From: Methylomonas rapida
Lineage (GTDB): Bacteria; Pseudomonadota; Gammaproteobacteria; Methylococcales; Methylomonadaceae
Length of the DNA stretch: 64,000 nucleotides
Reading direction: 5' to 3'
NCBI RefSeq assembly: GCF_024360925.2
Contig: NZ_CP113517.1
Span: 2,232,001-2,296,000, forward strand
The position numbers and the translations under genes are program-made. Shown one piece after another: positions 47,726-63,901 of the stretch. Under the pieces are notes generated by a model. It was given only the letters and a program-made list of their open reading frames with translations. It was not told the origin of the DNA and made no database searches. Numbering within the stretch: position 1 is the first letter of the stretch; each line of letters opens with the position of its first letter.

Positions 47726-47765
47726 GGCTATTTTTGCCCATCCCCTCGAAAAGGTAAAAATTAGC
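47726..47765 (+). repeat. Left terminal inverted repeat of the cob transposon (40 bp)
   Basis: Starts GGCTATTTTTGCCCATCCCC; perfect inverted match to 63862-63901. Preceded by AATAA. Confidence 0.95.
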
Positions 47766-47776
47766 AGTAGCTAATA

Positions 47777-50700
47777 TTAAGGGTCGCTACCTTCTCCCAC
47801 AGACTTACGCCAGAAATCAGGGTCGTTATAGCGTGCCGCCAAGGCATCGATGTCAACCTTGGCGTTTTCTTCCGTAAATTCGAACTTACCGATCAGATTC
47901 ACATTTTGCCATGCGACGGGCGACGTGCCTTTGATGATCTCGATAGCATCCTGGTCACCGGCAGCCAGTTTTTGCTCATACACCCGCGACAAGATCAGCG
48001 TGTTGTAGTGGATGATGGCGTTGGCAATCAGCCGGGAACACTCGTTCCAGATTTGCTGCTCCGCTTCGGTTTTTACCCGGAATTTGCCGGCATTGACATA
48101 GGAAATGGCTCGTCGCATACGGTGATACGCCTCGCCGCGATTAAGCGCCTTTTGAATGCGCTGCCTGAGTATCGGGTCATCGATGAAATCAAGGATATGA
48201 AGTGACCGATAAATATTGTCCAATTCCCATAGTGCCTTTTTGGTCTGGTTCTGCCGCTTATAACTGGCGAGCTTACGCACGATGGTTGCTTGAGTTACAT
48301 CTTTTTGAGCCAGCGAAGCCAGAATGCGCTGGATATTCGGCCACTCCTTGCATATTAAAGTATCAAAGGCCTTACGCGATGGCTTAAACAAGGCATCGCC
48401 ATAACGGCTTGGGTGCTGGAACCCAACTAGGCTATCGATTTTTTTATGCAGGTCACGATATCGTGGCGAAAATTGGTAGCCGAAGACGCGCAAGATAAAG
48501 AAATTCACTTGATTGGTGCCATGCGTGTCCGTCGAATGCCTTTCCGGCTTGATCTCCGTGGTATTGTTGTACAGGATGTCGAACACGAAATGTGATTCAT
48601 GTTCGTGCGCACCGATAATCTTGGCATTAATCGGGACATGATTCATGGCCAAGGTAATGGCGTTTACGCCTTTCTTTAGCGCGAAAAACTTGCTGGAGTG
48701 TCGGGCATTGATCGTGTCGATCTGCGTGACTATATGCTGGCCATCACTGCTAGAATGTTTCTGATGGTGGATGTCGTACGCTTGGAAAACAGGTAACGCA
48801 GCCGTAGCGTTGGAAACGGCGTCATTCGCTGCATGTAGCGTTTCCGCCCGCAGGAAATTGCGAGCCGTCGTCAGCAACGCAGAATGACTAAGACCTGATA
48901 CTTCCGCCATTTTCCATAAGCCCATATTGGTACCCATGGCAACAATACACGCCAGGATGAGTCTCGGATCGGCATCTTGTTTAACGTAGCGCTCCAAAAC
49001 GTGGGCAAATGCTTTCAAGAATCCTGTTCTTTCAGCGACGAACCAAAGCAGGTCAGCCACGCCGATACTTGGCAATCGACCATAGAACGGACTGTTGGTT
49101 GGTTCTTCCTCGGAGGGATAAACCAACGTCCAGCGAAGTTTTTCCCCGGTACCGGTAATTTTGATATGTTTATTGTCGCCGCTTTCAATACGCTGGTTCA
49201 CTGATTTGTACTTGGCTTCCAGTTCCCGCTTGAGCGCGGCTAACGTATCCTGGATTGGTGTCAACAGAATCGGTGCGCCGATTTCTTGCAATATCGCCTC
49301 TTTATCCTTATTCCAACGCGCGGCGTTGATCAGGTCGTCATCAAAGCTGCGAAATTCGTTGCTATCCCGAACAAATACGTCACAGGCTTCAAGCGCCTTC
49401 CGTAGCTCGCGGTACACCAGGAACTCATAACGATCAACCTCTAGGGTTTTCTTTTTATGTTCTTCCGACTTGGTATACAAATACCGCTGCAAATTCTTTG
49501 CAATGATTCCGGTCGGGAAGTTGGCCGGGTTCATCTGTCGTGGTGTCTTGCCCTGGCGCAGCAACTCCTGTAGAAAAAGGATAGATTCCAGCAGGGGCTC
49601 ATCCGACACCAGGCAAACGAAATCGAGGTTACAGAACAAATGCCGTAAATTGAGCTTGAATTTGTGCCGCAGCGTACCGTAATACGACCATTCAAAAGCG
49701 GTTTTATCGAATTCGATGTTGCGCATAAAATCGGATACGACTGGAAAGCTCTCGATGTTGAGCAGATCGAAAGCCTTTTGCTTTATGGTCGCAAACGGTG
49801 TTTCATCAGGAATTGAAGCGTCGATGAACAATTCCAGAACTTGGCCTGCCGCCTGGAGATTCGCGCCGGCCTCGTTGATGGCTTGCTGCATGGCCTCGTC
49901 GGCGGCAAGTTTGGCTTGTTTCTCGTATTGGCCAATGAGACAAATCAGGGCTTCGATCAAATTATCGTTGATTTGCCGAAAGCGATGAAAGGCGAAACAC
50001 AGCAAATACAGGCGTGTTGTGGGTTCCGCCATGCGCCGCAGCTTGTAGACGGAGTAGAACGGAACCAATGAGGCATAGTATTTTATACTCTCATTGGACA
50101 GGCCGGCAGTACCCAGAAAGCTTTGCCCGAATTCATACAGCGGCTGAAAAAATTTGCGGCGGTCAACCTCCTGGCGTAACTCGCGGTAACTGAAATCCTT
50201 AGGCTCGTGTTTGAGTAGGCTGATGCGATACATGCCTTCCTCGGACTCAAGCAAGGCTTCGAGCTGCTTGTCGACATCCGGCGTCACGGCTTTTTTCAGT
50301 AAGTCCGTAATCCGCCGACGTTCGCCTGTCACTACTCGGCTCACCATGTCCTGTAGATAAGTGTAGCCAGGAGCAATTAGGCGTTGGTTCGTAAGGTATT
50401 GTAAGGTTTCGCGTAGGATGTAAATCGGCTGTGTCGACAGCATGGCGACCCGCTGCGCTTTCTGTTCCAGTGCCGCCTTGGCCTCGCCGTCGCATAGGCG
50501 ATAGTCGAATAACTGGAGGATGATCTGTTGCTGTTCGAGCCGGGTCGGCTTGGAAAGGGTTTTGATCTTATCTAATGCCTGGTCGGGGAAATACCGCTGG
50601 AGAATATAGTGTAGGTCGTCGAGCACGGCCTCCCGCCCGTAAACAAAAAACTGTTGCTTGGCCTTGAAATACCCGATTTGAAGGATTAAGTGGACTGCCG

Positions 50701-50854
50701 ATGAGCGGGCATAAACGGCGTCGACAGCTTTCTGTTCAATCACGCTTAAATCGAAGAAGAGACTGCGGTCGTGATCGCTGAAACGAGGCAACCCGTATAG
50801 ATCATCGATTTCACTTTTCGTCAGGATAGACAGGCGGCGCGAATTGACGTTCAT
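47777..50854 (-). CDS. tnpA: Tn3-family transposase 3 (of the cob transposon)
   Basis: 1025 aa. N-terminal domain [20 protein letters not shown], with [20 protein letters not shown], and the C-terminal DDE core: [14 protein letters not shown] (Asp), [15 protein letters not shown] (Asp), [16 protein letters not shown] (Glu). Divergent from the other two Tn3 transposases in this window. The stop lies 11 bp inside the left repeat. Full length, no frameshift: the transposon is probably still active. Confidence 0.94.
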
Positions 50855-51006
50855 TCGGCGCCGCTTTTCGGCGAGTGCAGAAAGTACACTTTTTGCACCC
50901 TACGTTCACCGATCCTTTCCAATTTCAATTCCTTTAATTTTGAGTGCAGAAACCTTTGCCAAAATCATAATGCATTTAACTGTGCTATGTGTTAACTTTT
51001 TGCACT
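50855..51006. other. res region of the cob transposon
   Basis: Between divergent tnpA and tnpR. GAGTGCAGAAAGTACACTTT then TTGCACC (50873-50899) is an inverted pair GTGCAGAAA/TTTTTGCAC; half-sites recur at 50942-50952 (GAGTGCAGAAA) and 50996-51005 (CTTTTTGCAC). This is the subsite layout of a resolvase target and must also hold both promoters. Confidence 0.6.
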
Positions 51007-51612
51007 ATGCAAACCAATACTACCTCTACCACCACGCCACTTCATCGAATCGGCTATGCCCGAGTCAGCAGTATCGGCCAAAATCTGGATTCTCAAATTG
51101 ATGCGCTGCAAAAAGCGGGGTGCGGCAAAATATTTTCCGACAAGATGACCGGCTCGCACATGGATCGACCTGGCTGGGATCAGCTTTTAGAATATGCTCG
51201 CCCTGGCGATACCTTGGTTGTCAGCGAATTAAGCCGCATGACGCGCTCTTTGATGGATTTACTGACAACGGCAAAGGTGCTGGAACAGCGGCAAATTAAT
51301 TTAGTGTCATTGCGCGAAAATATCGATACCACCACGGCGACTGGCCGTTGTTTCTTGTCGATGATGGGCGCTATTCACCAAATGGAGCGGGAACTTCGCG
51401 CAGAGCGGGCGGCAGCGGGACGTTCATCCGCTAAAGCGCGGGGCAAAACGGGTGGAAGACCTAAAACTGACCCAGAAAAATTGGAGAATGCCAGAATCCT
51501 CTATGAAAACTCGGACAAAACTGCCGCCGAGGTTTGTGAGATTACCGGCGTAGGGAGACGAAAATTCTTCTCCTACGTGGCCGAGAAACGGAATGGCTCT
51601 GGTAAAACGTAA
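51007..51612 (+). CDS. tnpR: Serine resolvase of the cob transposon
   Basis: 201 aa from MQTNTTSTTTPLHRIGYARV. The catalytic Ser is in IGYARVSSIGQNLDSQ; LVVSELSRMTRSLMDLL, ENIDTTTATGRCFLSMMGAI and the C-terminal HTH (DKTAAEVCEITGVGRRKFFS) complete a standard small serine recombinase. Divergent from tnpA across res, and immediately upstream of the cobalamin cargo. Confidence 0.92.
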   Translation: MQTNTTSTTTPLHRIGYARVSSIGQNLDSQIDALQKAGCGKIFSDKMTGSHMDRPGWDQLLEYARPGDTLVVSELSRMTRSLMDLLTTAKVLEQRQINLVSLRENIDTTTATGRCFLSMMGAIHQMERELRAERAAAGRSSAKARGKTGGRPKTDPEKLENARILYENSDKTAAEVCEITGVGRRKFFSYVAEKRNGSGKT

Positions 51613-51719
51613 AATTGCATTTGAATTGGGGCTGACAAATGCACGAATTCTAGAGTGCCAATTGTTCTCTCGGGGGCTTCGGTGGATTGATCCAAATTAG
51701 CTCGGTCAAACTTAATCGA

Positions 51720-51884
51720 GTATAATTACTCTAGGTTTAGGTTCCCGCTTTGGCGGGTGAAACTGGAAGTCGGTTCAAGGCCGACGCTGCCCCCGCAACG
51801 GTAGGTGATTCGTCACGAGCCCGGAGACAGGCCTGAAACTTTAGCAACAGTCGCGGAGGGCGAGCTGTCAAATCGGTTTTTTTG
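51720..51884 (+). promoter_or_regulatory. Cobalamin riboswitch controlling the cob operon
   Basis: A TATAAT at 51721-51726 is followed by the aptamer: GGAAGTCGGTTCAAGGCCGACGC region (51765-51787), the B12-box CTGCCCCCGCAAC (51787-51799) and GAGCCCGGAGACAGGCCTG (51817-51835), all diagnostic of cobalamin riboswitches. The following hairpin ACAGTCGC/GCGAGCTGT (51847-51869) plus TCGGTTTTTTT can act as the expression platform. High adenosylcobalamin should shut the operon. Confidence 0.92.
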
Positions 51885-51934
51885 GTTTGCCGTTCCCGCT
51901 GTTTTTCCGTCCACCTCATTCGGAACAGCCAACC

Positions 51935-52111
51935 ATGAAAACGCTCACTGCCTCAACTGCCATCGTTTCCTCCAAACTCCTGCCCGGCCTGAGTGCCATT
52001 GTATTGGGCCTGAGCGTCGTTTTGGGTCTGGGTTTCTTGCAGGACGCCAATAACACACTGCACAACGCCGTCCACGACGGCCGTCATAGCGCAGCCTTTC
52101 CTTGCCATTGA
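51935..52111 (+). CDS. cbtB: CbtB, predicted cobalt transporter small subunit
   Basis: 58 aa: one membrane helix (LLPGLSAIVLGLSVVLGLGF) and a His-rich C-terminal tail NNTLHNAVHDGRHSAAFPCH, the metal-binding hallmark of CbtB. First gene after the riboswitch, 1 bp before cbtA, as usual for this pair. Brings cobalt to the pathway; transport has been predicted from context rather than shown for most members. Confidence 0.9.
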   Translation: MKTLTASTAIVSSKLLPGLSAIVLGLSVVLGLGFLQDANNTLHNAVHDGRHSAAFPCH

Positions 52112-52112
52112 C

Positions 52113-52763
52113 ATGGCGGATTTTCGCAAACTGGTCGCAGTCTCGCTGCTGGCCGGCGTATTGGGCGGCTTGTTGCTCAGCGTATTGCAACATTATCAAA
52201 CCCTGCCGTTGATTTTGGCCGCCGAACAGTTCGAAACGCCATCGGCCGAACAGGCGCATGACTGGCAGCCGAGCTATGGCTGGCAGCGTAACGGCTTTAC
52301 CTGGCTGTTCAACAGCCTGACCGGCTTCGGCTTTGCCTTGTTGATCAGTGCCGCCATGTACTGGCGCGATCAACGCGGCTATCTGTATGGGCTGGGCTGG
52401 GGTTTGGCCGGTTACTGGGTGTTTTTTGTCGCGCCGTCATTGGGACTGCCGCCAGAACTGCCCGGTACCGACAGCGCCGAGTTGCATAGCCGTCAGGCCT
52501 GGTGGCTGTTTACCGCAGCGGTGACGGCAGGAGGTTTGTTTGGCCTGTTTTTGAGCAGACAGCGCTGGCTGCAAATCGGTGGCGTCGGTTTGCTGGTATT
52601 ACCGCATATCATCGGAGCGCCCCATCCGGAAGTTGCCCACGCCTTGGCTCCCGAAGCATTACAACAGCAATTCGTCATTGGTACGGCCATCAACAACGCC
52701 GTTTTCTGGCTGGCGTTGGGTGCTTTATCGGGCATGGCGTTACGCAAAGTGACATTTTCATGA
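52113..52763 (+). CDS. cbtA: CbtA, predicted cobalt transporter
   Basis: 216-aa inner-membrane protein with about five spans: FRKLVAVSLLAGVLGGLLLS, FNSLTGFGFALLISAAMYWR, GLGWGLAGYWVFFVAPSLGL, LFTAAVTAGGLFGLFLSR and INNAVFWLALGALSGMAL. Conserved LPPELPGTDSAELHSRQAWW and PHIIGAPHPE loops match CbtA, with His residues for metal. Overlaps cbiA by 4 bp. Confidence 0.9.
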   Translation: MADFRKLVAVSLLAGVLGGLLLSVLQHYQTLPLILAAEQFETPSAEQAHDWQPSYGWQRNGFTWLFNSLTGFGFALLISAAMYWRDQRGYLYGLGWGLAGYWVFFVAPSLGLPPELPGTDSAELHSRQAWWLFTAAVTAGGLFGLFLSRQRWLQIGGVGLLVLPHIIGAPHPEVAHALAPEALQQQFVIGTAINNAVFWLALGALSGMALRKVTFS

Positions 52764-54061
52764 TGCAGACCATGGCAACGCACCATTGCCCGGCAATGTT
52801 GATTAGCGCCCCCGCCTCCGGCCAAGGCAAAACCACCATCACCGCAGCCCTGACCTACTACCATCGCCAACAAAACCGCAAGGTGCGAGTGTTCAAGACC
52901 GGGCCGGATTTTATCGATCCGCAAATCCTGAGCTTTGCTTGCGGACACCCCGTTTATCAGCTGGATTTATGGATGATGGGCGAAGCGCATTGCTGCGAGC
53001 TGCTGTATCAAGCGGCAGCCGATGCCGACGTCATTCTGATCGAAGGCGTGATGGGCTTGTTCGACGGTGACAGCAGCAGCGCCGATTTGGCGCAAACACT
53101 CGACGTGCCGGTGGCGGCGGTCATCGATGCCGGCGGCATGGCGCAAACCTTTGCCGCCGTGGCTTATGGTTTGGCCCACTACCGGGCTGATTTGCCGTTT
53201 GCCGGTGTCATTGCCAACAAAGTGGGCAGCCCTGGCCATGCCAAATTGCTGTTAGAGGCCTTGCCGGAAAACCTGCCTTTGCTGGCGGCAATGGCGAAAG
53301 ACGATGGCGTAGGCTTGCCGTCCCGGCACTTGGGCTTGTTGCAGGCCGACGAAATCGGCGACCTCGATCTGCGCCTGGCGCGCGCTGCCGATTTGCTCAA
53401 TAGCCTGGCGCTGTGCCGATTGCCGGAACCTGTTGCCTTCGCGCCGATCACGGCCTCACCGCCGCCACGTTTACTGGCCGGTAAACGTATCGCCGTGGCT
53501 CGCGATGCCGCGTTTTCCTTTATTTATCAGGCCAATCTGGATTGTTTGCTTGCGATGGGTGCCGAGCTGGCGTTTTTCTCGCCGCTGACCGATAGCGCAT
53601 TGCCGGAGGCCGACAGCATCTATTTGCCCGGCGGCTACCCGGAACTGCACCTGCAAACATTGGCGGACAATGTTGCCATGAAACAAGTCTTGCAGGCGCA
53701 TCATCAAGCCGGCAAGCCGATTTACGCCGAATGCGGCGGTTTTTTATATTTGCTGGAGCGATTGACCGACCATGATGGCCATTGCGCCAATATGGCCGGC
53801 CTGTTACCCGGCAGCGCGCAGATGCAGAAACGGCTGGTGAATCTGGGCATGCACAGCTTGCAGCTGGAACAAGGCGAAATTCGCGGTCACAGCTTTCATC
53901 ATTCGCAACTGACAACGACTATGCAGCCATTCACGATGTCCAACCCGCAACGCCAGCGTAGCCATAGCGAAAACTTTTTCCGGGTCGGTTCGTTGCAGGC
54001 ATCTTATCTGCACCTTTATTTTCCGTTCAATCCGCAGGTTGCGGCTGGGTTTTTTCTATGA
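52760..54061 (+). CDS. cbiA: Cobyrinate a,c-diamide synthase
   Basis: 433 aa. N-terminal P-loop ISAPASGQGKTTITAALTYY, then TGPDFIDPQILSFACGHPVY and VIEGVMGLFDGD-type segment LIEGVMGLFDGDSSSADLAQ; C-terminal class I glutamine amidotransferase with the Cys of YAECGGFLYLLERL and a later His. Uses glutamine and ATP to amidate side chains a and c of (cobalt) cobyrinate, the last corrin step coded here. The name cobB is used for the late-cobalt homologue; the early-cobalt context favours cbiA. Confidence 0.93.
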   Translation: MMQTMATHHCPAMLISAPASGQGKTTITAALTYYHRQQNRKVRVFKTGPDFIDPQILSFACGHPVYQLDLWMMGEAHCCELLYQAAADADVILIEGVMGLFDGDSSSADLAQTLDVPVAAVIDAGGMAQTFAAVAYGLAHYRADLPFAGVIANKVGSPGHAKLLLEALPENLPLLAAMAKDDGVGLPSRHLGLLQADEIGDLDLRLARAADLLNSLALCRLPEPVAFAPITASPPPRLLAGKRIAVARDAAFSFIYQANLDCLLAMGAELAFFSPLTDSALPEADSIYLPGGYPELHLQTLADNVAMKQVLQAHHQAGKPIYAECGGFLYLLERLTDHDGHCANMAGLLPGSAQMQKRLVNLGMHSLQLEQGEIRGHSFHHSQLTTTMQPFTMSNPQRQRSHSENFFRVGSLQASYLHLYFPFNPQVAAGFFL

Positions 54062-54867
54062 ACACGCAGCCTGATCCGGCGAAAGTCTGGTTCGTCGGCG
54101 CCGGCCCCGGCGACCCGGATTTGATCACCGTCAAAGGCCGAGACTTGATCGCCAAGGCAGATGCCATTTTATTCGCCGGCTCGTTGGTACAGGCCGCCGC
54201 GACCCAATGGGCGCCCAGCACTTGCGTGATCAAAGACTCCAAAGACATGACCCTGGAGCAGATTACCGACTGGCTGATCGAACAAGCCGGGCCGGGCAAA
54301 ACCGTGATTCGCCTGCAAACCGGCGATCCGGGTTTGTACGGCGCCTTGATCGAAATGGTGCAACGGCTGGATGCAGCCCAGATTGCCGTCGAAGTGGTGC
54401 CAGGCGTGTCCTCCGCATTTGCCGCGATGGCCTGCGCTGTGGAAAGCCTGACCTTGCCCGAAGTGACGCAAACCGTGATTCTGACCCGGGTCGAAGGCCG
54501 CACGCCGATGCCGGACGGCGAATCCTTGCAGGAACTGGCCAGCCATCACACCACGCTGTGCCTGTTTTTATCGATTACCTTGCTGCCCACCATCGAGCGC
54601 GAATTGAAAGCCGCTGGTTGGGCGGATGATGCCCCGGTATTGGTGGTGCACAAAGCCAGTTGGCCGGACGAGCAGCAAATCATTCGCGGCACACTGGCCG
54701 ATATCCGCGAACGCTGCCGGGCCGCCAAAATCAACAGCCAGGCCATGATTGTGGTCAGCCCCACTCTGGGCGCGCGGCAGTGGCCTACGTTAAAAAAATC
54801 CAAACTCTACGATGCCGGTTTTACCCATCGCTTCCGCCGTGCCGAGCGGCCAACTTCTCAGGAATAA
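54058..54867 (+). CDS. cbiF: Cobalt-precorrin-4 C11-methyltransferase
   Basis: 269 aa SAM-dependent tetrapyrrole methylase. KVWFVGAGPGDPDLITVKGR is the first SAM loop; LQTGDPGLYGALIEMVQRLD and EVVPGVSSAFAAMACAVESL are the other family motifs. Methylates C11 of cobalt-precorrin-4. Overlaps cbiA by 4 bp and cbiX follows after 2 bp. CobM is the late-cobalt name of the same family. Confidence 0.92.
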   Translation: MNTQPDPAKVWFVGAGPGDPDLITVKGRDLIAKADAILFAGSLVQAAATQWAPSTCVIKDSKDMTLEQITDWLIEQAGPGKTVIRLQTGDPGLYGALIEMVQRLDAAQIAVEVVPGVSSAFAAMACAVESLTLPEVTQTVILTRVEGRTPMPDGESLQELASHHTTLCLFLSITLLPTIERELKAAGWADDAPVLVVHKASWPDEQQIIRGTLADIRERCRAAKINSQAMIVVSPTLGARQWPTLKKSKLYDAGFTHRFRRAERPTSQE

Positions 54868-54869: not shown

Positions 54870-55691
54870 ATGACAACCACCGTCCTTCTGGTTGGCCACG
54901 GTTCACGTAATCAGGCCGGTAACGATGAAATTCAGCAATTTCAGCAACAATGGCAAGCCCAACACCCCGACTGGCGCATAGAGTTGTGCTATATCGAACT
55001 GGCCGATGTACTGTTGCCGGAGGGTTTGAGCCGCGCCGCGCAGGACTCCGAGCGGGTGATTGTGGTGCCATTGATCATCAGCGCCGCTGGCCATGTGAAG
55101 ATGGAGATTCCCGAGCATATCGAAGCAGCCCGCGCGAAATTCCCAGGCGTCGAATTCATCTACGCACCGCATCTGGGCAGCAACGAAACCTTGCTGGCCA
55201 TTCTGCAAAAACAACTGAAAGGCGCACTCAAATCCCTGGCCATGCCGGACCCAAAAACCACCGGCGTGATCATATTAGGCCGTGGTTCCTCCGACAAAGT
55301 CGCCAACGGCGAACTGGCCAAACTGGCGCGTTGGCTGTTCGAAGTCACCGAGCATGAATTGATCGACATCGCCTTTACCGGCATTACCCATCCCCGTCTG
55401 GAAACCGCCGTGCAACGCCAAGTGCGGCTGGGCATGACGCAGATTGCGATTTTGCCTTACTACCTGTTCACCGGTCTGCTGATCGAGCGCATCGGCCAAC
55501 AAGTCGAGCGCTTGCAATGGCAATACCCTCAGGTTGCCTTCGCTGCCGGCAGTTATTTCGGTTTCGATCCGGCGATTTTTAAATTGCTCGATCAACGGGT
55601 GAGCGAAGCCTGCGACCCGACCGCACCAAACATGCTGGAATGCGACGGTTGTCAGTATCGCGAACAGGCCGAACATCACCACCATCATTGA
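54870..55691 (+). CDS. cbiX: Sirohydrochlorin cobaltochelatase, long CbiX type
   Basis: 273 aa from MTTTVLLVGHGSRNQAGNDE (a longer frame overlaps cbiF and is not used). Two CbiX domains: His of VGHGSR and PLIISAAGHVKMEIPEHI in the first, ILGRGSSDKVANGELAKLAR in the second. The C-terminus has a Cys cluster (MLECDGCQYR) and ends in five histidines, matching the Fe-S/His-rich tails of long CbiX proteins. Inserts Co2+ into sirohydrochlorin and so marks the early-cobalt pathway. Confidence 0.93.
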   Translation: MTTTVLLVGHGSRNQAGNDEIQQFQQQWQAQHPDWRIELCYIELADVLLPEGLSRAAQDSERVIVVPLIISAAGHVKMEIPEHIEAARAKFPGVEFIYAPHLGSNETLLAILQKQLKGALKSLAMPDPKTTGVIILGRGSSDKVANGELAKLARWLFEVTEHELIDIAFTGITHPRLETAVQRQVRLGMTQIAILPYYLFTGLLIERIGQQVERLQWQYPQVAFAAGSYFGFDPAIFKLLDQRVSEACDPTAPNMLECDGCQYREQAEHHHHH

Positions 55692-56371: not shown

Positions 56372-57475
56372 ATGGCGATGCCGGAACGCAAACCCAAGGG
56401 CACCCGCAAGGGTTACACCACCGGCGCCTGTTCGGCGGCGGCGGCGCGGGCGGCCGTACAAGGTTTGCTGGAAGGGTGTGTGCCGGAAACCATAGACTGT
56501 GAGCTGCCCAACGGCCAAGTGGTGGCGTTCAACGTCAAAGAAGGCTGGATAGACAACGATTGTGCGCATGCTGTGATCGAAAAAGACGCGGGCGACGATC
56601 CGGATTGCACTAACCACGCCTGGCTGACCGCGGATGTAGTTTGGATTGAACAACCCGATACCATTATCTTGCAAGGCGGCGCAGGCATCGGCCAGATCAC
56701 CCGTCCTGGTTTAGGACTTGCCATTGGCGGCCCGGCTATCAATCCGGTTCCGCGCAAAAATATCGAAGATAACATCCGCTTGATCGCCGGTGAAGCCCTA
56801 AAAACCAGAGGCTTACAGGTGACCATCTCCGTGCCGGGCGGCGAAGAGATGGCGAAAAAAACCCTGAATTACCGCTTGGGCATAATCGGCGGTATTTCGA
56901 TTTTGGGTACCACGGGCATCGTCCATCCGTATTCCACGGCGGCATTTCGGGCTAGCGTGGTGCAAGGCGTGGAAGTGGCGGCTAATCAAGGTCAAGCCAG
57001 CGTGGTACTGACCACCGGTGGCCGCACCGAGAAATTCGTGATGCGCGAGTTGCCCGAGCTGGATGAAAGCTGTTTCGTGCAAATGGGCGATTTCCTGACT
57101 CCGGCACTGGATGCCGCCGAGCGTTGCGGCATTCAAAACATCATCATCGGCGGCATGGTCGGCAAGCTGACCAAAATGGCGCAAGGCGAAACCATTACCC
57201 ATGCCGGTCGCGCACCGGTCGATGTGGAACTGGTGGCCGACATCGCCCGCAGCATTGGCGCGCCGAACGATGTATGCGACGCTATCGCCGGGCAGGAAAC
57301 CGCCCGTTACGCTTCGGAATGCATGGCGGAACTGGGGCTGGAACACGCCTTTCATGTCGAACTGGCTAGGCGGGTAATCGCCACGCTGGAAAACCGGTAT
57401 CCCGGCCGTTTTCACATCAGTGTGCTGGTGTGTGACTTTGACGGCAACAAACTGGCCGAAGCCGGAAGGAATTGA
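56372..57475 (+). CDS. cbiD: Cobalt-precorrin-5B C1-methyltransferase
   Basis: 367 aa, normal for CbiD. RKGYTTGACSAAAARAAVQG is the N-terminal signature; GAGIGQITRPGLGLAIGGPA, INPVPRKNI, LGTTGIVHPYSTAAFRASVV and GMVGKLTKMAQGETITHAGR follow. Methylates C1 on the early-cobalt route; CbiD has no counterpart in the CobG/CobN pathway, so it supports an oxygen-independent route. 4 bp after cbiC. Confidence 0.95.
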   Translation: MAMPERKPKGTRKGYTTGACSAAAARAAVQGLLEGCVPETIDCELPNGQVVAFNVKEGWIDNDCAHAVIEKDAGDDPDCTNHAWLTADVVWIEQPDTIILQGGAGIGQITRPGLGLAIGGPAINPVPRKNIEDNIRLIAGEALKTRGLQVTISVPGGEEMAKKTLNYRLGIIGGISILGTTGIVHPYSTAAFRASVVQGVEVAANQGQASVVLTTGGRTEKFVMRELPELDESCFVQMGDFLTPALDAAERCGIQNIIIGGMVGKLTKMAQGETITHAGRAPVDVELVADIARSIGAPNDVCDAIAGQETARYASECMAELGLEHAFHVELARRVIATLENRYPGRFHISVLVCDFDGNKLAEAGRN

Positions 57476-57477
57476 TC

Positions 57478-58785
57478 ATGCAGGCAATGTGCAGTTTTAT
57501 CGGCGTGCTCGACAACGGTGCGGCCAGCCTGAGCCAGGAGGCCTTGCAAACCTTGCATGCCGCCCAACACGTCATCGCCGGTAGTCGTCTGCTTGAAATC
57601 ATGGCTGACGATATTAGCCATGCCCAACATTACGACCTGACCGGACGACTCAAACAGGTGCCGGGCTGGATCGAAGCCGCCCTGGCAAAAAATCAAGACG
57701 TGGCGGTGCTGGCGACCGGCGATCCCTTATGTCACGGCATCGCCGGCTTCCTGGCCGGCAAGCTGGATAAATCCCGGCTGCGCATCCTGCCCAATCTCAG
57801 CACCATACAATTAGCCTTTGCCGAGTTGAAATTGCCCTGGCATACGGCCCGCATCGTTTCCGTGCACAGCAAGGACGCCGGCGAATGGCAGCGCGGCGCT
57901 ACACCCGAACATAACTTGTATGAATTGGCCCAACGCTGCCGCCAACATGACTTGTTGGCGATATTGACCAGCCCGGACAACACGCCGGCCCGTATTGCCC
58001 GGATGCTGCAAATTGAAGGTATGGCCGATAGGTTTCAAGTGGCTATTGCCGCATTGCTGACTCAACCGGAACAGCAGGTCAGTGGCTGGTTGAGTTGCGC
58101 CGAGGCGGCGAAAAGCGACTATCCCGATCCCAATGTTGTCATCCTGAAACGCACTACGCCACAGCCGTTTCCAGTATTATTCGGCCTGCCTGACGACAGT
58201 TTCAGCCAGCGCAAACCGGAAAAAGGCCTGATCACCAAACGCGAAGTGCGTGCGGTATCTTTGGCGAGGATGCAATTGACGCGTCGAAGCATTGTCTGGG
58301 ACATCGGCGCGGGTTCCGGCTCGGTCGGGCTAGAGGCTGCGCGGCTGTGTTCGGAGGGTCATGTCTTTGCCATCGAAAAAAACACCGATGACATTGCTAA
58401 TGTCGAACAGAATCAGGCCGCCTGGGGTATCAGCAACTACAGCTTCATGCACGGCAAAGCCCCGCAGTTTCTCGATACCTGGCCCGACCCGGACGCGGTA
58501 TTTATCGGCGGTTCCGGCGGCGAACTGGTGGAACTGATCGCCTTGTGTTTAGGGCGTTTGCGCCCGGCGGGTTGGCTGGTAATGAACTTCGTCACGCTGG
58601 AAAACCTGTCCACCGCCGTCGAAACCCTGAAACAACTCGGCGCAGACTGGGACGTCTGCCAAATTCAGGCCTCGCGCAGCAGCCCGATTCTGGCCATGCA
58701 TCGCATGCAGGCCGAGAATCCGGTGTGGATCGTGTCGGCCACCCATTCTTTACAGCCCATATCAAGCGGTCACGATGAACACTAA
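57478..58785 (+). CDS. cobL: CbiE-CbiT fusion, precorrin-6B C5,15-methyltransferase
   Basis: 435 aa from the ATG after GGAAGGA. N-terminal CbiE-type tetrapyrrole methylase (FIGVLDNGAASLSQEALQTL; LATGDPLCHGIAGFL) and C-terminal CbiT methyltransferase/decarboxylase from about residue 240 (RREVRAVSLARMQL-like TKREVRAVSLARMQLTRRSI; SAM loop VWDIGAGSGSVGLEAARL). The fusion is the CobL arrangement. Methylates C5 and C15 and removes the C12 acetate carboxyl. Confidence 0.93.
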   Translation: MQAMCSFIGVLDNGAASLSQEALQTLHAAQHVIAGSRLLEIMADDISHAQHYDLTGRLKQVPGWIEAALAKNQDVAVLATGDPLCHGIAGFLAGKLDKSRLRILPNLSTIQLAFAELKLPWHTARIVSVHSKDAGEWQRGATPEHNLYELAQRCRQHDLLAILTSPDNTPARIARMLQIEGMADRFQVAIAALLTQPEQQVSGWLSCAEAAKSDYPDPNVVILKRTTPQPFPVLFGLPDDSFSQRKPEKGLITKREVRAVSLARMQLTRRSIVWDIGAGSGSVGLEAARLCSEGHVFAIEKNTDDIANVEQNQAAWGISNYSFMHGKAPQFLDTWPDPDAVFIGGSGGELVELIALCLGRLRPAGWLVMNFVTLENLSTAVETLKQLGADWDVCQIQASRSSPILAMHRMQAENPVWIVSATHSLQPISSGHDEH

Positions 58786-59551
58786 ACTCGGCACCCTCTA
58801 CGGCATCTCACTCGGCCCCGGCGACCCCGGCCTGATCACTCGTCGCGCTTGGGAATTACTCTCCAGCGCCGGTCATTGGACCTATCCGGTGCGCAAGAAA
58901 AATAGCGACAGTTATGCCTTGGACATTGCCTTGCGCGCCGGTCTTGAATGTCCCCAAGCCCATACTGCGCTGCATTTTCCAATGACTCACGATGCGGATA
59001 TTCTGGCTCGCTATTGGTTGGAAGCCGCACAGACCGTGCTGGCCCTACTGCAAGGCGGTGAGGATGTGTTGTTTTTGGTGGAAGGCGACGCGTCAACGTA
59101 TTCCACCTTTGGCCACTTACAACGTAGCGTTCGCGCTTTGCAAGCCGATGTCACGGTCGAGGTGGTGCCCGGCGTATCATCGTTTCATGCGGCGGCCGCG
59201 TGCGCGGGCGAAGCCTTGGCCGATGTCGACGATACTATCGCCATTGTGCCGGCCGGTTACGGCATCGCGCAGATAGAACGGATGTTGAACGACTTCGATA
59301 CCTTGGTATTACTCAAGGTCAAACCATTGTTGGATGACATTATCGATCTGTTGCGCCGCCGCGATTTACTGGCCCACGGTTGGTTCGTCGAGAAAGCCGG
59401 TGCCCCGGAAGAGCGCATGGTGCATGACCTCGCCAGCCTATATGGGCAAAAGGTCAATTACCTGTCTTTACTGATTATCAAAAACCCAGGCCGCCAGCGC
59501 GGCGAAATGCAGCGCGGTTGCCGTAAAAAGCAGGATGAAATCCATGAATGA
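58775..59551 (+). CDS. cbiL: Cobalt-precorrin-2 C20-methyltransferase
   Basis: 258 aa. LGTLYGISLGPGDPGLITRR opens the SAM-binding domain; YPVRKKNSDSYALDIA is the CobI/CbiL-specific loop; LFLVEGDASTYSTFGHLQRS and EVVPGVSSFHAAAACAGEAL complete it. First methylation after precorrin-2. Overlaps cobL by 11 bp. The C-terminal tail RQRGEMQRGCRKKQDEIHE is basic and probably unstructured. Confidence 0.93.
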   Translation: MNTKLGTLYGISLGPGDPGLITRRAWELLSSAGHWTYPVRKKNSDSYALDIALRAGLECPQAHTALHFPMTHDADILARYWLEAAQTVLALLQGGEDVLFLVEGDASTYSTFGHLQRSVRALQADVTVEVVPGVSSFHAAAACAGEALADVDDTIAIVPAGYGIAQIERMLNDFDTLVLLKVKPLLDDIIDLLRRRDLLAHGWFVEKAGAPEERMVHDLASLYGQKVNYLSLLIIKNPGRQRGEMQRGCRKKQDEIHE

Positions 59552-60278
59552 TGTGCGTGTCGCCATCGTGGCGATTACCAAACACGGGGCCGCAATTGCC
59601 AGCCGCCTGGCGCCACAAATCCCGGAAGCCGAGGTGGTGGTATCGGAGAAGCAAGCCGAACATTTGGCTGAATTTGCCAATCCGCGGCGGGTGTATCAAG
59701 GCGCCTTGAGCGCGCAAATCGGCGATCTGTTCTCGGCTTACGACCAGATCATCTTTCTGGTGTCGCTGGGCGCGGTGGTGCGCTTGATTGCGCCGCATCT
59801 CAAATCCAAGGACGAAGACCCCGGCGTGCTGGTAATCGACGATGCCGCCGAATTCGTAATCCCGGTATTGTCCGGTCACGTCGGCGGCGCCAATGCCTAT
59901 GCGGAAAAAGTCGCCGTCTTGTTGAAGTCCACGCCGGTACTGACTACGGCCTCGGATGTCGGCAAAACCATACCGGTGGATATTTTGGGACGCGAGCTGG
60001 GCTGGCAAGTGGAAGCTCCCAAGATCAACATCACCCGCGTGTCGGCGGACGTGGTCAATCAGCAGCCAGTTGCCTTCGTGCAGGAAGCCGGCAGTGCCAA
60101 CTGGTGGACGCGGCCCACACCGTTACCGACCAATATTCATTTGTTCCAGCGCTTCGAGGACGTGGATACCGCGAAATACCACTCGATTTTATGGGTGACC
60201 CAGCGGGAAATAGCGCCGGCTATCTGGGAACAGCTTGCGGAAAGATTGGTGGTGTATAGGCCGCCGCTCGAGCAATGA
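59544..60278 (+). CDS. cbiG: CbiG N-terminal and middle domains
   Basis: 244 aa. MNDVRVAIVAITKHGAAIAS then IIFLVSLGAVVRLIAPHLKS, PVLSGHVGGANAYAEKVAVL are the CbiG N-terminal signature; the middle domain (LGWQVEAPKINITRVSADVV) completes it. CbiG opens the delta-lactone ring of cobalt-precorrin-5A and releases acetaldehyde. The C-terminal CbiG domain is coded by the next gene. A start at 59535 (MKSMNDV) is also possible. CbiG is an early-cobalt marker. Confidence 0.9.
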   Translation: MNDVRVAIVAITKHGAAIASRLAPQIPEAEVVVSEKQAEHLAEFANPRRVYQGALSAQIGDLFSAYDQIIFLVSLGAVVRLIAPHLKSKDEDPGVLVIDDAAEFVIPVLSGHVGGANAYAEKVAVLLKSTPVLTTASDVGKTIPVDILGRELGWQVEAPKINITRVSADVVNQQPVAFVQEAGSANWWTRPTPLPTNIHLFQRFEDVDTAKYHSILWVTQREIAPAIWEQLAERLVVYRPPLEQ

Positions 60279-60667
60279 AAGTAATGGTCGGCATGGGCTG
60301 CGACCGCAACGCCAGCCTGGAAACCTTGCGGCAGGCGTTGGCTCAGGCCTTGTGGCATTGCGGGCTGGATAAATCGGCGGTCGTTGGTCTGGCCAGTATC
60401 GACAAAAAAAACGACGAGGCGGCCTTATTAGAACTGGCGGCTGCGTACAGCTGGCCGCTGATGTTTTATTCCGCCGAGGAACTGGCCGCCATCGCTGTGC
60501 CGAATCCTTCCAAGGTGGTCATGAAATATATGGGCACGCCAGCCGTGGCGGAAGCGGCGGCGTTGAAGGCCGCCAATGTTGGTTGGGCACAGTTGCTGGT
60601 CGAAAAACATAAATATTGTGGCGCGGATGGCAAGAACGCCACCGTTTCAATTGCGAGAATTCAATGA
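60275..60667 (+). CDS. CbiG C-terminal domain / CobE-like protein
   Basis: 130 aa: MKVMVGMGCDRNASLETLRQ, VVGLASIDKKNDEAALLELA, PNPSKVVMKYMGTPAVAEAA, with final KYCGADGKNATVSIARI. This is the CbiG_C/CobE domain as a separate protein. Overlaps the N-terminal gene by 4 bp, so the two halves of CbiG are coupled at translation and probably form a complex. Confidence 0.88.
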   Translation: MKVMVGMGCDRNASLETLRQALAQALWHCGLDKSAVVGLASIDKKNDEAALLELAAAYSWPLMFYSAEELAAIAVPNPSKVVMKYMGTPAVAEAAALKAANVGWAQLLVEKHKYCGADGKNATVSIARIQ

Positions 60668-62025
60668 CGAAAGCGGGAAAAATTTTACTGGTCGGTATCG
60701 GCCCCGGCAATCACGAGCACATGACGGCTCGCGCACGACAAGCGATTGCGGAAGCAGACGTGGTAATTGGTTACAGCACCTACATCAAGCTGGTGCAAGA
60801 CTTGCTCGATGGTAAGGAGGTCATCAAAAAAGGCATGACCGAAGAGCTGGATCGCAGCATCGAAGCCTACGAACACGCCAAGCAAGGCAAAATCGTCGCC
60901 ATGGTGTCGTCCGGCGACATCGGTGTTTACGGCATGGCGGGGCCAACTTACGAGCTGCTGCTGGACAGCGGCTGGACGCCGGACGATCCGATTGAGGTGG
61001 AAGTGGTGCCCGGTAGCACCGCGTTGTCGAGTTGCGCCTCCCTGGTCGGCGCGCCGCTGACCCATGATTTCTGCTCGATCTCCCTATCCGATTTATTGAC
61101 GCCGTGGCCGGTGATTGCCCGCCGCCTGGAAAGCGCTGCGCGTGGCGATTTCGTGGTGGCGCTCTATAACCCGAAAAGCGGCCGACGCACCCAGCATATC
61201 GTCGAAGCACAAACGATCTTACTGCACCATCGTAGCCCGGATACGCCGGTGGCCATCGTCAAATCGGGCTACCGCGCCCGGCAACACATCCAGTTGGTGC
61301 GTTTGGCGGAGATGGCCGATTGCGACATCGGCATGTTGACCACGGTCTTGGTCGGCAACAGCAGCACCTTTGTTCGGGAAGGTTTGATGGTGACGCCACG
61401 CGGCTATGCCAATAAATACAATGCCATGACCGGCGAAACCCGGGCAGGCGAACAGGCGGGGCGCTCGTTGAGCATGGGCCTGGAGGGCTGGAAAAGTTGT
61501 GTTCGGCAATATCTGCGCGACACGCCCAAGGTGACATTACAACAGGCGGCGGAATATTTTGGGCAACCGTTGTCGGAAGTTCTCGATGCGGTCGGCCATG
61601 CCACATTGGACGATCAGGCCGGCATTTTCTGTGCGCAACGGGCAGCGCCGGACAGTCATGAACGTTTACTCACCGCACTCCAGGAGTGGGGTAAATTACG
61701 TGCCGTGGTTCGTAGCGAAGGCGGAGCGGTGGCGGAATTGTTGATCAACGCCGCCGATTTGCAGGAAAAAAACGGCTGGCTGAGTATCGTCAACGACAGC
61801 TTTCATTTACACATCGACTGGCGTAAGGCGCAGCAGATCTGGTTTGTCAGCCGACAGGACCAAGCCCATGGCATTCAGGTGCTGGACAGCCAAGGTGAGG
61901 CCTTGTTCAATTTATGGTTGGTTGCCGGGGAAACAGGTTTCGACAGCGCAGCTCTGCAGCATTACCGCGACGACCGCACACAATTTGGCGTCTCAACGCC
62001 TGAGGAGTCCTGTCACCATGACTGA
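60664..62025 (+). CDS. cbiH: Cobalt-precorrin-3 C17-methyltransferase with extra C-terminal domain
   Basis: 453 aa from MTKAGKILLVGIGPGNHEHM (coupled by a 4-bp overlap). Residues 1-250 are the CobJ/CbiH methylase (DVVIGYSTYIKLVQDLLDGK, SSGDIGVYGMAGPTYELL, TPWPVIARRLESAARGDFVV, ALYNPKSGRRTQHI), which methylates C17 and contracts the ring. Residues 255-453 form an added domain: ALQEWGKLRAVVRSEGGAVA, NDSFHLHIDWRKAQQIWFVS, IQVLDSQGEALFNLWL, a pattern that resembles half of a HemS/ChuX-type heme-binding protein. That resemblance is by eye only. Plain CbiH is about 250 aa. Confidence 0.88.
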   Translation: MTKAGKILLVGIGPGNHEHMTARARQAIAEADVVIGYSTYIKLVQDLLDGKEVIKKGMTEELDRSIEAYEHAKQGKIVAMVSSGDIGVYGMAGPTYELLLDSGWTPDDPIEVEVVPGSTALSSCASLVGAPLTHDFCSISLSDLLTPWPVIARRLESAARGDFVVALYNPKSGRRTQHIVEAQTILLHHRSPDTPVAIVKSGYRARQHIQLVRLAEMADCDIGMLTTVLVGNSSTFVREGLMVTPRGYANKYNAMTGETRAGEQAGRSLSMGLEGWKSCVRQYLRDTPKVTLQQAAEYFGQPLSEVLDAVGHATLDDQAGIFCAQRAAPDSHERLLTALQEWGKLRAVVRSEGGAVAELLINAADLQEKNGWLSIVNDSFHLHIDWRKAQQIWFVSRQDQAHGIQVLDSQGEALFNLWLVAGETGFDSAALQHYRDDRTQFGVSTPEESCHHD

Positions 62026-62365
62026 TATGCCAGAAAAACCAAAAATGGGTGAATACAAACGCCACCTGCTGGTTTGTACCGGCCCACGCTGCACCGAAAA
62101 TGGTGAAGCCCAAGCCTTATTCGAAACCCTGGGCGAGAAGTTTAAAGCGGCGGGCATCGACAAAGGCGAACTCAGGGTCAAACGTACCCGCACCCACTGT
62201 TTCGCCACCTGCAAATCCGGCCCCATTATGTGCGTACAACCCGATGGCGTCTGGTATTACAACGTCAATGAAGCCAATTTACAGCGTATCATCAATGAGC
62301 ATTTGCTGGACGGCAAGCCGGTCGAGGATTTGATTTATCATCGAAGCGCTTGCCCGGTTCCATAG
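62018..62365 (+). CDS. Thioredoxin-like 2Fe-2S ferredoxin
   Basis: 115 aa from MTDMPEKPKMGEYKRHLLVC with TGAGGAGT upstream. Cys ligands: HLLVCTGPRCTENG and THCFATCKSGPIMCVQPDG, the CxxxxC ... CxxxC pattern of thioredoxin-like 2Fe-2S ferredoxins. Such genes occur in cob operons of proteobacteria and may supply electrons to a reductive or Fe-S-dependent step, for instance in place of the missing precorrin-6 reductase; that is inference. Overlaps cbiH by 8 bp. Confidence 0.88.
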   Translation: MTDMPEKPKMGEYKRHLLVCTGPRCTENGEAQALFETLGEKFKAAGIDKGELRVKRTRTHCFATCKSGPIMCVQPDGVWYYNVNEANLQRIINEHLLDGKPVEDLIYHRSACPVP

Positions 62366-62383
62366 CAGTAACACCCAGTCGTC

Positions 62384-63769
62384 ATGGATTATTTCCCGCT
62401 TTTCTTGAAAGTTAAAGGCCAAACGTGCCTGGTGGTAGGCGCTGGCGAAATCGCGGCGCGAAAAATTGAATTACTGATCCGCGCTGGAGGCAACATCGTC
62501 GTGGTTGCTACAGAAATTGGTAACACGGTAGCCGCTATGCAGCATTCAAACCCGATCGTTATCCGCCAAAAAGCATTTTCGCATGAGGATGTCGACGGTA
62601 TGGGACTTGTGGTCTCCGCTACCAATTGCAGAACCACTAACATCGAGGTCTCCAACGTGGCGCATCAGCGAAGAATCCCGGTTAATGTGGTGGATGATCC
62701 GGCGTTGTGTTCTTTTATATTCCCGGCCATTATTGATCGCTCCCCTTTGCTTGTTGCCATTTCTTCGAGTGGTGTATCTCCCGTATTGACGCGGTTATTA
62801 CGGGCCAGGATAGAAAGTGCCATCCCAGCGTCGTTTGGCCTGTTGGTTCAATTGGCAGAAAAATTCAAGTTATTGGTCAAACAACGCATTCCACAACCGA
62901 GTCAGCGGAGAATTTTCTGGGAAAAAATTTTACAAGGATCGGTCGCCGAATTAGTTTTTGTAGGCAAGCAGGACGAAGCGGAACAACTGCTGCTATCGCA
63001 ACTGCAACAGGCCGATCCTGCTGTAAGTCAGGGTGAAGTGTATTTAATAGGTGCCGGCCCTGGCGACCCTGATTTATTAACGTTTAAAGCGTTGCGGTTG
63101 CTGCAGCAGGCTGATGTTGTCGTTTATGATCGACTGGTTTCCAACGAAATTCTTGATATGGCTAGGCGGGACGCCGAAAAAATCTATGTCGGTAAGCAGC
63201 GAGATAATCATAGCCTGCCGCAGGAGTCGATTAATCGATTGTTAACTGATTTAGCCCTGGCCGGCAAACGGGTCGCCCGATTAAAGGGTGGCGATCCTTT
63301 TGTCTTTGGTCGAGGGGGTGAAGAAATTGAGTCTATTATGCCACACGGGATCAGCTATCAGGTCGTGCCCGGCATTACGGCGGCGGCAGGCTGTGCCAGC
63401 TATGCGGGCATTCCCTTAACCCATCGAGATCATGCGCAATCCTGCACATTTGTCACCGGGCACTTAAAAGACGGCAGTATTAATCTCGATTGGCAGCATT
63501 TATCTCGTCCTAATCAAACGGTTGTGATTTTTATGGGACTGGCAGGATTGGCCACTATCTGCCGATCACTGATGGAACACGGTTGCCCGGCCAATCACCC
63601 CATTGCTGTCATTCAGTCAGGAACAACCAGAAACCAACGGGTATTAACAGGAACACTAGCCGATATGCCAGACCGTGTGGAACAGGCCGATATGGAGCCT
63701 CCGACACTGATTATTGTTGGTTCGGTAGTTACGCTCCATCAAAAATTGGACTGGTTTCAGACGTCATAG
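62384..63769 (+). CDS. cysG: Siroheme synthase / uroporphyrinogen-III C-methyltransferase (CysG)
   Basis: 461 aa, two-module enzyme. N-terminal NAD-dependent precorrin-2 dehydrogenase/ferrochelatase (MDYFPLFLKVKGQTCLVVGA, VVDDPALCSFIFPAIIDRSP, LLVAISSSGVSPVLTRLLRA) and C-terminal SUMT (VYLIGAGPGDPDLLTFKALR, ARLKGGDPFVFGRGGEEIES, VVPGITAAAGCASYAGIPLT). Makes precorrin-2 and sirohydrochlorin, the substrate of CbiX. Last gene of the cargo; its sequence looks more AT-rich than the rest of the operon, which hints at separate acquisition. Confidence 0.93.
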   Translation: MDYFPLFLKVKGQTCLVVGAGEIAARKIELLIRAGGNIVVVATEIGNTVAAMQHSNPIVIRQKAFSHEDVDGMGLVVSATNCRTTNIEVSNVAHQRRIPVNVVDDPALCSFIFPAIIDRSPLLVAISSSGVSPVLTRLLRARIESAIPASFGLLVQLAEKFKLLVKQRIPQPSQRRIFWEKILQGSVAELVFVGKQDEAEQLLLSQLQQADPAVSQGEVYLIGAGPGDPDLLTFKALRLLQQADVVVYDRLVSNEILDMARRDAEKIYVGKQRDNHSLPQESINRLLTDLALAGKRVARLKGGDPFVFGRGGEEIESIMPHGISYQVVPGITAAAGCASYAGIPLTHRDHAQSCTFVTGHLKDGSINLDWQHLSRPNQTVVIFMGLAGLATICRSLMEHGCPANHPIAVIQSGTTRNQRVLTGTLADMPDRVEQADMEPPTLIIVGSVVTLHQKLDWFQTS

Positions 63770-63861
63770 TAAAAATAAACTCTTACCATTGGGTGAGTTG
63801 ATAAGCGATCTGTCATTTCCAATGTTAGTCACTACATCCATCAGCTTAATCCATTAGTTAT

Positions 63862-63901
63862 TGCTAATTTTTACCTTTTCGAGGGGATGGGCAAAAATAG
63901 C
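63862..63901 (-). repeat. Right terminal inverted repeat of the cob transposon (40 bp)
   Basis: Ends CCCCATCC/GGGGATGG-type sequence with outer GGCTATTTTTGCCC on the minus strand; perfect match to 47726-47765. Followed by the AATAA duplication. Confidence 0.95.

What the first reader, a model, noticed from the sequence alone, without database searches (positions are those of the whole stretch)
47726..63901. A Tn3-family transposon that carries a whole riboswitch-controlled corrin biosynthesis operon
Seen directly: perfect 40-bp inverted repeats at both ends, a 5-bp duplication AATAA outside them, an intact 1025-aa transposase and a resolvase with res, and between res and the right repeat a cobalamin riboswitch plus cbtB, cbtA, cbiA, cbiF, cbiX, cbiC, cbiD, cobL, cbiL, cbiG (two genes), cbiH, ferredoxin and cysG. 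Removing the 16,176-bp unit and one AATAA restores the interrupted transposase gene in frame. Known: Tn3-family elements usually carry resistance, catabolic, virulence or toxin-antitoxin genes. Inference: this unit can spread cobalamin ring synthesis between genomes in one step. I know of no described Tn3 element with such a cargo.
Basis: partly seen in the sequence, partly recalled or inferred. Interest (0 to 1): 0.96.

Follow-up and report, generated by a model that had tools for sequence, protein, structure and literature searches.

The report
Transposon carrying vitamin B12 ring operon
A transposon of a family best known for carrying drug- and metal-resistance genes here carries nearly all the genes for building the vitamin B12 ring, and related copies in other methane-eating bacteria, one of them on a plasmid, suggest that this ability can be passed on as a unit.

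Summary
Confirmed, with corrections. The unit is 47726-63902 (16,177 bp): end repeats perfect over 41 bases, duplication AATAA, Tn3-family transposase, serine resolvase, res-like site, full cobalamin riboswitch and 14 genes, cbtB to cysG. It lies in the transposase gene of a second Tn3-type transposon (45786-71705, duplication TTATA); copies of that region without the insertion exist in two relatives. The host is a closed Methylomonas genome whose only CbiC is in this unit. The operon lies between the same repeats on the LL1 plasmid (TAGTA) and in strain R-45363, and beside one such repeat in MAG OWC_0100, there joined to the other side of the transposition module. Elements without cob carry other cargo. 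Duplications match in 7 of 10 testable elements: 7 of 7 in Methylococcaceae, 0 of 3 distant ones. Across 37 genus genomes ring genes are patchy (20), late-pathway cobQ near universal (35); cob and rpoB identities conflict in both directions. Limits: 18 of 22 cob loci show no repeats, cbiJ is found in none of 37 genomes, and neither transposition nor B12 synthesis is shown. A new kind of cargo for a known transposon family.

The parts
47721..47725 (.). left copy of the 5-bp target duplication AATAA
47726..47775 (+). left inverted repeat (41 bp perfect, 48 of 50 matched)
47777..50854 (-). tnpA, Tn3-family transposase, 1025 aa
   Evidence: Pfam DDE_Tnp_Tn3 and DUF4158; aligned with Tn4430 TnpA 7qd8, D/D/E motifs line up
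50874..51005 (.). res-like site between tnpA and tnpR: dyad 50874-50898, half-sites 50943-50954 and 50997-51005
   Evidence: recognisable, with a few changes, in the 8 elements aligned
51007..51612 (+). tnpR, serine resolvase (longest frame from 50989)
   Evidence: Pfam Resolvase; ATG at 51007
51722..51850 (+). cobalamin riboswitch aptamer
   Evidence: RF00174, 82.9 bits, model 1-189 of 189
51935..52111 (+). cbtB, cobalt transporter subunit
   Evidence: Pfam CbtB
52113..52763 (+). cbtA, cobalt transporter subunit
   Evidence: TIGR02458 over cut-off
52760..54061 (+). cbiA, cobyrinate a,c-diamide synthase (start codon placed by eye)
   Evidence: PRK01077 448 bits, over cut-off
54058..54867 (+). 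cbiF/cobM
   Evidence: TIGR01465 over cut-off
54870..55691 (+). cbiX, sirohydrochlorin cobaltochelatase
   Evidence: Pfam CbiX
55699..56367 (+). cbiC, precorrin-8X methylmutase; the only one found in the genome
56372..57475 (+). cbiD
   Evidence: Pfam CbiD
57472..58785 (+). cbiET fusion (cobL-like)
   Evidence: TIGR02467 and TIGR02469 over cut-off
58775..59551 (+). cbiL/cobI
   Evidence: TIGR01467 over cut-off
59535..60278 (+). cbiG N-terminal and middle domains
60275..60667 (+). cbiG C-terminal domain
60664..62025 (+). cbiH/cobJ with C-terminal ChuX/HutX-like domain
62015..62365 (+). 2Fe-2S thioredoxin-like ferredoxin (start codon unsettled)
   Evidence: Pfam 26.8 bits against 24.8; NCBIfam ferredoxin models only below their cut-offs
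62384..63769 (+). cysG
   Evidence: PRK10637 over cut-off
63853..63902 (-). right inverted repeat
63903..63907 (.). right copy of AATAA
45786..64000 (.). outer Tn3-type transposon that was hit; runs on to position 71705 beyond the window; the 3' part of its transposase gene is 45819-47725 (-)
   Evidence: 36 of 39 matched end repeats, duplication TTATA

Best explanation
A unit transposon of the Tn3 family, resident in the genus Methylomonas, has taken up a cobalamin-riboswitched operon for the upper (corrin ring) half of B12 synthesis as passenger. TnpA acts on the two end repeats and inserts a copy with a 5-bp duplication; TnpR resolves the cointegrate at res (both steps inferred from family knowledge). 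In this genome it landed in the transposase gene of another Tn3-type element. The chromosome holds late pathway genes (cobU, cobT, cobS, bluB, cobQ, cbiB, cobD), a BtuB-like receptor, the B12-dependent reductase NrdJ and a B12-riboswitched nrdAB, so the unit would turn a B12 importer into a ring maker, and the riboswitch would keep it quiet while B12 can be imported. Shown: anatomy, duplications, target regions without the insertion, other copies, patchiness, identity conflict with rpoB. Inferred: transposition of the intact unit, spread by it, and B12 production.
For: Ends and duplication; matching duplications in 7 of 7 Methylococcaceae elements with both ends and flanks; a second complete cob element on the LL1 plasmid (TAGTA), a third with both repeats in R-45363 and one with one repeat seen in OWC_0100; cob-less elements in M. 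lenta, koyamae Fw12E-Y and G020 with TnpA DNA 94-95% identical; target regions without insertion in G025 (exactly 5 bases of overlap) and G002; CbiC only here in the genome; late genes elsewhere in the chromosome; CbiD and CbiC in the same 20 of 37 genomes, cobQ in 35 of 37; cob/rpoB conflict: LL1 against G002 cob 94.4%, rpoB 81.3%; R-45363 against G018 cob 66.8%, rpoB 97.0%.
Against: In 18 of 22 cob loci no such repeat was found in the stretch fetched (a few of these stretches are cut by contig ends). Three distant elements with both end repeats have duplications that do not match (L008, L014, L035). The four transposon-borne operons are not one clade, 4 label changes, and cob sits on opposite sides of tnpA/tnpR in the window and in the other three, so it was taken up or rearranged more than once. 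For the window's own copy no recent donor was found: cob exceeds rpoB by at most 5.2 points (G011, 87.2 against 82.0; LL1, 85.9 against 83.1). Over all 119 pairs cob identity is higher in only 63. No CbiJ in 37 genomes. OWC_0100 tnpA is interrupted.
Confidence: 0.88

Rival explanations
1. The corrin operon spreads in Methylomonas mainly by other routes (integrase islands, plasmids, homologous exchange); the Tn3 unit is a late, incidental vehicle.
For: 18 of 22 cob loci show no such repeats; the G019, G020 and G025 copies share about 5.2 kb of upstream flank that in G020 holds a tyrosine integrase and an AlpA-like gene, and one of the two G024 copies shares the nearer 3.2 kb; identity within the operon is mosaic: cbiL is 92-93% identical to the window's in G011, G002 and LL1, other genes there 77-89% except cbiC 94% in G011.
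Against: Three genomes carry cob between both repeats and a fourth beside one, one of them on a plasmid; the koyamae chromosomal copy keeps a repeat-like stretch right after cysG, score 17 against a maximum of 15.5 in 984 control stretches and 16 in 500 shuffles, found after the fact.
Confidence: 0.35
2. Chance composite: a cob-less Tn3 element inserted beside a resident operon that happened to have a solo repeat on its far side; the two never moved together.
For: In the window cob joins after tnpR, in the other three after tnpA, so side-by-side joining did happen at least once.
Against: The matching 5-bp duplication spans the whole 16,177 bp and parts of one gene lie on both sides, with copies lacking the insertion in relatives; LL1 repeats the spanning duplication with TAGTA.
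Confidence: 0.03
3. The unit is mobile but its operon makes no B12 in this host (missing CbiJ or decay), so the cargo is a passenger without effect.
For: No CbiJ in any of 37 genomes; cbiA is reduced to remnants in LL1, G002 and G011; a review says growth of R-45363 was strongly stimulated in co-culture, correlated with partners able to make quinone, pyridoxine and cobalamin (passages of PMC5023238).
Against: All frames in the window are open; CbiJ was also not seen in 4 of the 7 control genomes that have CbiC, so an unrelated reductase is common; LL1, G002 and G011 have a second CbiA elsewhere. The same review says the strains of that study, R-45363 among them, grew on methane without external cobalamin.
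Confidence: 0.12
4. Assembly artefact joining two repeats.
For: None found.
Against: One contig, independent copy in a plasmid recorded as complete, target regions without the insertion.
Confidence: 0.01

Closest known systems
Tn3-family unit transposons with divergent tnpA/tnpR and res between them
   Same: End repeats of about 40 bp, 5-bp duplication, DDE transposase homologous to Tn4430 TnpA, serine resolvase, res-like site between the two genes
   Different: Passengers described in PMC7157771 (passages read) are antibiotic and metal resistance, virulence, organic catabolism and toxin-antitoxin genes; here a vitamin-ring operon with its riboswitch. I did not assign the subgroup.
cob-less sister elements in Methylomonas: M. 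koyamae Fw12E-Y plasmid pFW12EY, M. lenta, G020
   Same: Same repeats and TnpA 94-95% identical in DNA
   Different: Carry CusA/P-type ATPase metal efflux, or other genes such as a Gp49-like toxin gene and an M24 peptidase
Methylibium petroleiphilum PM1 plasmid RPME01 phn-cob region
   Same: A related cob cluster between two copies of one Tn3-family transposase gene
   Different: Two separate transposase copies in direct orientation, with phn genes repeated after the second; end repeats and duplications there were not tested; its likeness to IS1071 is recalled, not tested
Plasmid-borne cob clusters (Thermus, Azospirillum, Acidovorax, Ideonella, Sphaerotilus and others)
   Same: cob genes on plasmids: 92 of 72,556 plasmid records hold a CbiD match, LL1 among them
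   Different: Four of these records other than LL1 were read (PM1, Acidovorax, Ideonella, Sphaerotilus); in the last three no Tn3-family transposase is annotated in the stretch shown; end repeats were not searched there

Membership tests
Tn3 family | DDE transposase of the Tn3 type, about 1000 aa | tested here: met
   417 bits against a cut-off of 24; Tn4430 alignment
Tn3 family | terminal inverted repeats of roughly 40 bp | tested here: met
   41 perfect, 48 of 50
Tn3 family | 5-bp target duplication | tested here: met
   AATAA in the window. Over all elements with both ends and flanks in hand: 7 of 10 match; 7 of 7 in Methylococcaceae, 0 of 3 distant ones (L008, L014, L035; L035 differs at one base)
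Tn3 family | resolvase gene with res | tested here: met
   serine resolvase; dyad between the genes; three full subsites were not delimited
Tn3 family | copy-in transposition through a cointegrate, immunity | not testable with these tools
   needs a mating-out assay
Cobalamin riboswitch (RF00174) | full aptamer above gathering score upstream of B12 genes | tested here: met
   82.9 bits, full model, ends 84 bases before cbtB
Cobalt-early (anaerobic-type) corrin pathway | CbiX, CbiL, CbiH, CbiF, CbiG, CbiD, CbiET, CbiC, CbiA | tested here: met
Cobalt-early (anaerobic-type) corrin pathway | CbiJ reductase | tested here: not met
   0 of 37 genomes; 3 of 14 controls ring; an unrelated reductase is likely (inference)
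Composite transposon between two insertion sequences | two IS copies around the cargo | tested here: not met
   one transposase inside a single pair of repeats

The most novel reading that the evidence does not exclude
B12 synthesis in Methylomonas is split into a resident lower half and a mobile upper half; this Tn3 platform swaps cargo (metal efflux, toxin genes, ring operon) and has repeatedly picked up and set down the ring operon, so that B12 prototrophy of methane oxidisers is switched on and off species by species by transposition.
Probability: 0.45. Interest if true: 0.86.

Novelty: new variant of a known kind. Interest (0 to 1): 0.77.

Why it matters
Some methanotroph strains, Methylomonas among them, are reported to need cobalamin from neighbours, with hints of strain differences (passages of PMC5023238). 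A transposon with the ring half of the pathway, in a genus where 31 of 31 good genomes keep the late step cobQ but 19 of 31 have the ring genes, gives a concrete and testable mechanism for how B12 dependence comes and goes. It also widens the cargo recorded for Tn3 elements, as far as I could search, from resistance, virulence and catabolism to an anabolic vitamin pathway with its own riboswitch.

Tried and rejected
Considered and dropped: composite transposon (one transposase inside one pair of repeats); assembly error; solo-repeat coincidence. Tried without result: a tree of TnpA DNA (8 rows) is unresolved, one supported branch of 5, so it does not say how often cob was taken up. Searches of the open-access library for a Tn3 element with cobalamin cargo gave nothing: 0 papers; 20 of 156 listed; 20 of 35; 20 of 23; 15 of 25; 2 of 2; 20 of 5,365; 9 of 9; of these I saw listings and starts of abstracts only, except passages of PMC5023238 and PMC7157771. 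Searches looked for PM1 and for methanotroph cobalamin need; passages of PMC3091735 and PMC4517660 were seen. Subscription papers are not held, so absence from print is not shown. Kane 2007 (PM1 genome) and Iguchi 2011 (methanotroph cobalamin) are not held and were not read.

Rows left out: the cob tree used 18 of 22 loci (G022 partial; G016, G003, G001 left out as distant); rpoB was found in 24 of 26 genomes asked (not G022, G029), so the 119 pairs hold no G029 locus and OWC_0100 has no rpoB comparison. Duplications could not be tested for R-45363 (contig ends at or 3 bases beyond the repeats) or OWC_0100 (one end only). Three distant elements with both repeats have non-matching flanks (L008, L014, L035) and were not in the table. 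Of the 78 genome-contig loci with TnpA relatives, up to 10 kb of flank each, cob genes were found in 2, both Methylomonas or its family; that tool may leave out records of the window's genome or very near ones. Cob stretches were fetched at 10.6-20 kb, so repeats further off would be missed; L130, L139 and L142 are cut by contig ends. The BtuB match is below its curated cut-off (542 against 599.7).
Full report
What is there. AATAA flanks it on both sides. Inside lie tnpA (1025 aa; Tn3 DDE domain and DUF4158), a resolvase gene, and between them a dyad AGTGCAGAAA...TTTTTGCAC with further half-sites, recognisable with a few changes in the 8 elements aligned. Against Tn4430 TnpA (PDB 7qd8) the three motifs with D, D and E line up; that these are the catalytic residues is recalled from the literature. 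A complete cobalamin riboswitch (82.9 bits) precedes 14 genes, cbtB to cysG, with open frames.

Nesting. The unit cuts the transposase gene of a second Tn3-type transposon with ends at 45786 and 71705, 36 of 39 matched, duplication TTATA, which carries a resolvase and MacB/HlyD/OEP-type efflux genes. Copies of that region without the insertion occur in G025 (91% on both sides, left and right matches overlapping by exactly 5 bases) and G002 (94%; overlap 3 bases because the left match stops 2 short). These are empty targets in other copies of the outer element, not the same chromosomal place; whether their frames are otherwise intact was not checked.

Host. The window lies in one 4,592,903-bp contig. 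The genus is Methylomonas: same-genus genomes are identical in the stretches checked to named Methylomonas records (R-45363, LL1, koyamae Fw12E-Y, lenta). CbiC occurs once, in the unit. Elsewhere the genome has cobU, cobT, cobS, bluB and cobQ in one cluster, cobD and a second cbiA, a riboswitch before a BtuB-like gene (below its curated cut-off) with cbiB downstream, a riboswitch before nrdAB and an NrdJ above its cut-off. So the lower half and B12 use are resident, the upper half sits in the transposon. BtuR/CobO and CobC were not searched.

Related elements. The repeat with up to 3 mismatches was found 19 times in 12 of 37 genus genomes, the control 0 times. cob genes lie between two such repeats on the LL1 plasmid (16,665 bp, TAGTA) and in R-45363 (a contig bounded by the repeats), and beside one repeat in OWC_0100. 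Elements without cob: M. lenta (AACGT), G020 (AGGGT), G025 (AATAA, only part of tnpA left), koyamae Fw12E-Y plasmid (TTCTT) and WB-IL-06 (AACAT). With the window and LL1 that makes 7 Methylococcaceae elements with both ends and flanks, 7 of 7 with matching duplications. Among distant relatives with both repeats, 3 of 3 do not match: L008, L014 and L035, the last by one base (repeats there differ from the window's by 3-9 bases). TnpA DNA of LL1, R-45363, lenta, G020 and koyamae is 94-96% identical to the window's, while the cob genes of LL1, R-45363 and OWC_0100 are 77-92% identical.

How cob was joined. In LL1, R-45363 and OWC_0100 the operon follows the 3' end of tnpA, where cob-less elements have their repeat; in the window it follows tnpR, while tnpA ends at the repeat as usual. 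About 25 bases after the window's tnpR match the cob-less G020 element (read by eye). The stretch from cysG through the right repeat is shared by the window and OWC_0100 (92.6% of 135) and is identical in LL1 and R-45363 (139 bp). So the operon met this platform at least twice, or the platform was exchanged next to an operon that already had its far repeat. Which of these is open.

Spread. CbiD and CbiC were found in the same 20 of 37 genomes (19 of 31 good ones), cobQ in 35 of 37 (31 of 31), CbiA in 29 of 37. Of 22 cob loci, 4 have one or two repeats and 18 have none within the 10.6-20 kb fetched; some of the 18 are cut by contig ends. Three of the 18 (G019, G020, G025) share an upstream flank that holds an integrase gene in G020, and G024 has two copies. 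Cob and rpoB identities disagree in both directions: G005-G024a 95.1 against 80.7, LL1-G002 94.4 against 81.3, R-45363-G018 66.8 against 97.0; over all 119 pairs cob is higher in 63, so the argument rests on the extremes. The four transposon-borne operons do not form a clade (4 changes forced by supported branches). LL1 and G002 share a cbiA deletion with nearly the same joint (joint read by eye). I conclude that the operon moves between species; that transposition of this unit is the main route is not shown, and for the window's own copy no recent donor was found.

Comparison with print. PMC7157771 (passages) lists Tn3 passengers as resistance, virulence and catabolic genes, plus toxin-antitoxin pairs; the word cobalamin does not occur in its main text. 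My searches found no description of a cobalamin cargo, within an open-access library only. The PM1 plasmid region is the nearest precedent that I saw; PMC3091735 (passages) reports cobalamin terms as over-represented among retained gene duplicates in PM1, and PMC4517660 (passages) a cobalamin operon on a plasmid of Methylibium T29. PMC5023238 (passages) reports cobalamin need in some methanotroph strains, Methylomonas included, and growth without external cobalamin in a study that includes R-45363, whose only CbiD is the transposon copy; the same passage says that R-45363 co-cultures were strongly stimulated, in correlation with partners able to make quinone, pyridoxine and cobalamin. This fits the idea loosely and does not test it.

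Noticed in passing
45786-71705 (beyond the window end, via L004): Outer Tn3-type transposon with its own duplication TTATA carrying MacB/HlyD/outer-membrane efflux genes, now split by the cob unit.
   Followed up: partly
60664-62025: CbiH/CobJ has a C-terminal ChuX/HutX (haem carrier) domain of about 105 residues; with the ferredoxin gene behind it a candidate for a missing reductase step.
   Followed up: no
genus-wide (37 genomes): No CbiJ in any of 37 Methylomonas genomes although 20 have the ring operon.
   Followed up: partly
L134 17468-17499: Repeat-like stretch, seemingly decayed, about 110 bp after cysG in the chromosomal operon of M. koyamae Fw12E-Y; the operon there may once have been in such a transposon.
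   Followed up: partly
31680-31767: C4 antisense RNA (RF01695), known from phages P1/P7 (recalled).
   Followed up: no
44847-45520: FitA-like antitoxin and PIN-domain toxin pair just outside the outer transposon.
   Followed up: no
41097-42692: A third Tn3-type transposase match (22% identity) in the same window, so Tn3 elements cluster here.
   Followed up: no
L141 7579-7700, L139 1070-1200, L130 1694-2155: cbiA reduced to remnants in LL1, G002 and G011, all of which have a second CbiA elsewhere.
   Followed up: partly
NC_008826.1 371292-406271: PM1 plasmid: phn and cob genes between two copies of one Tn3-family transposase gene.
   Followed up: partly
L008, L014, L035: Distant elements with both end repeats but non-matching 5-bp flanks, perhaps recombined or with ends drawn wrongly.
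   Followed up: no
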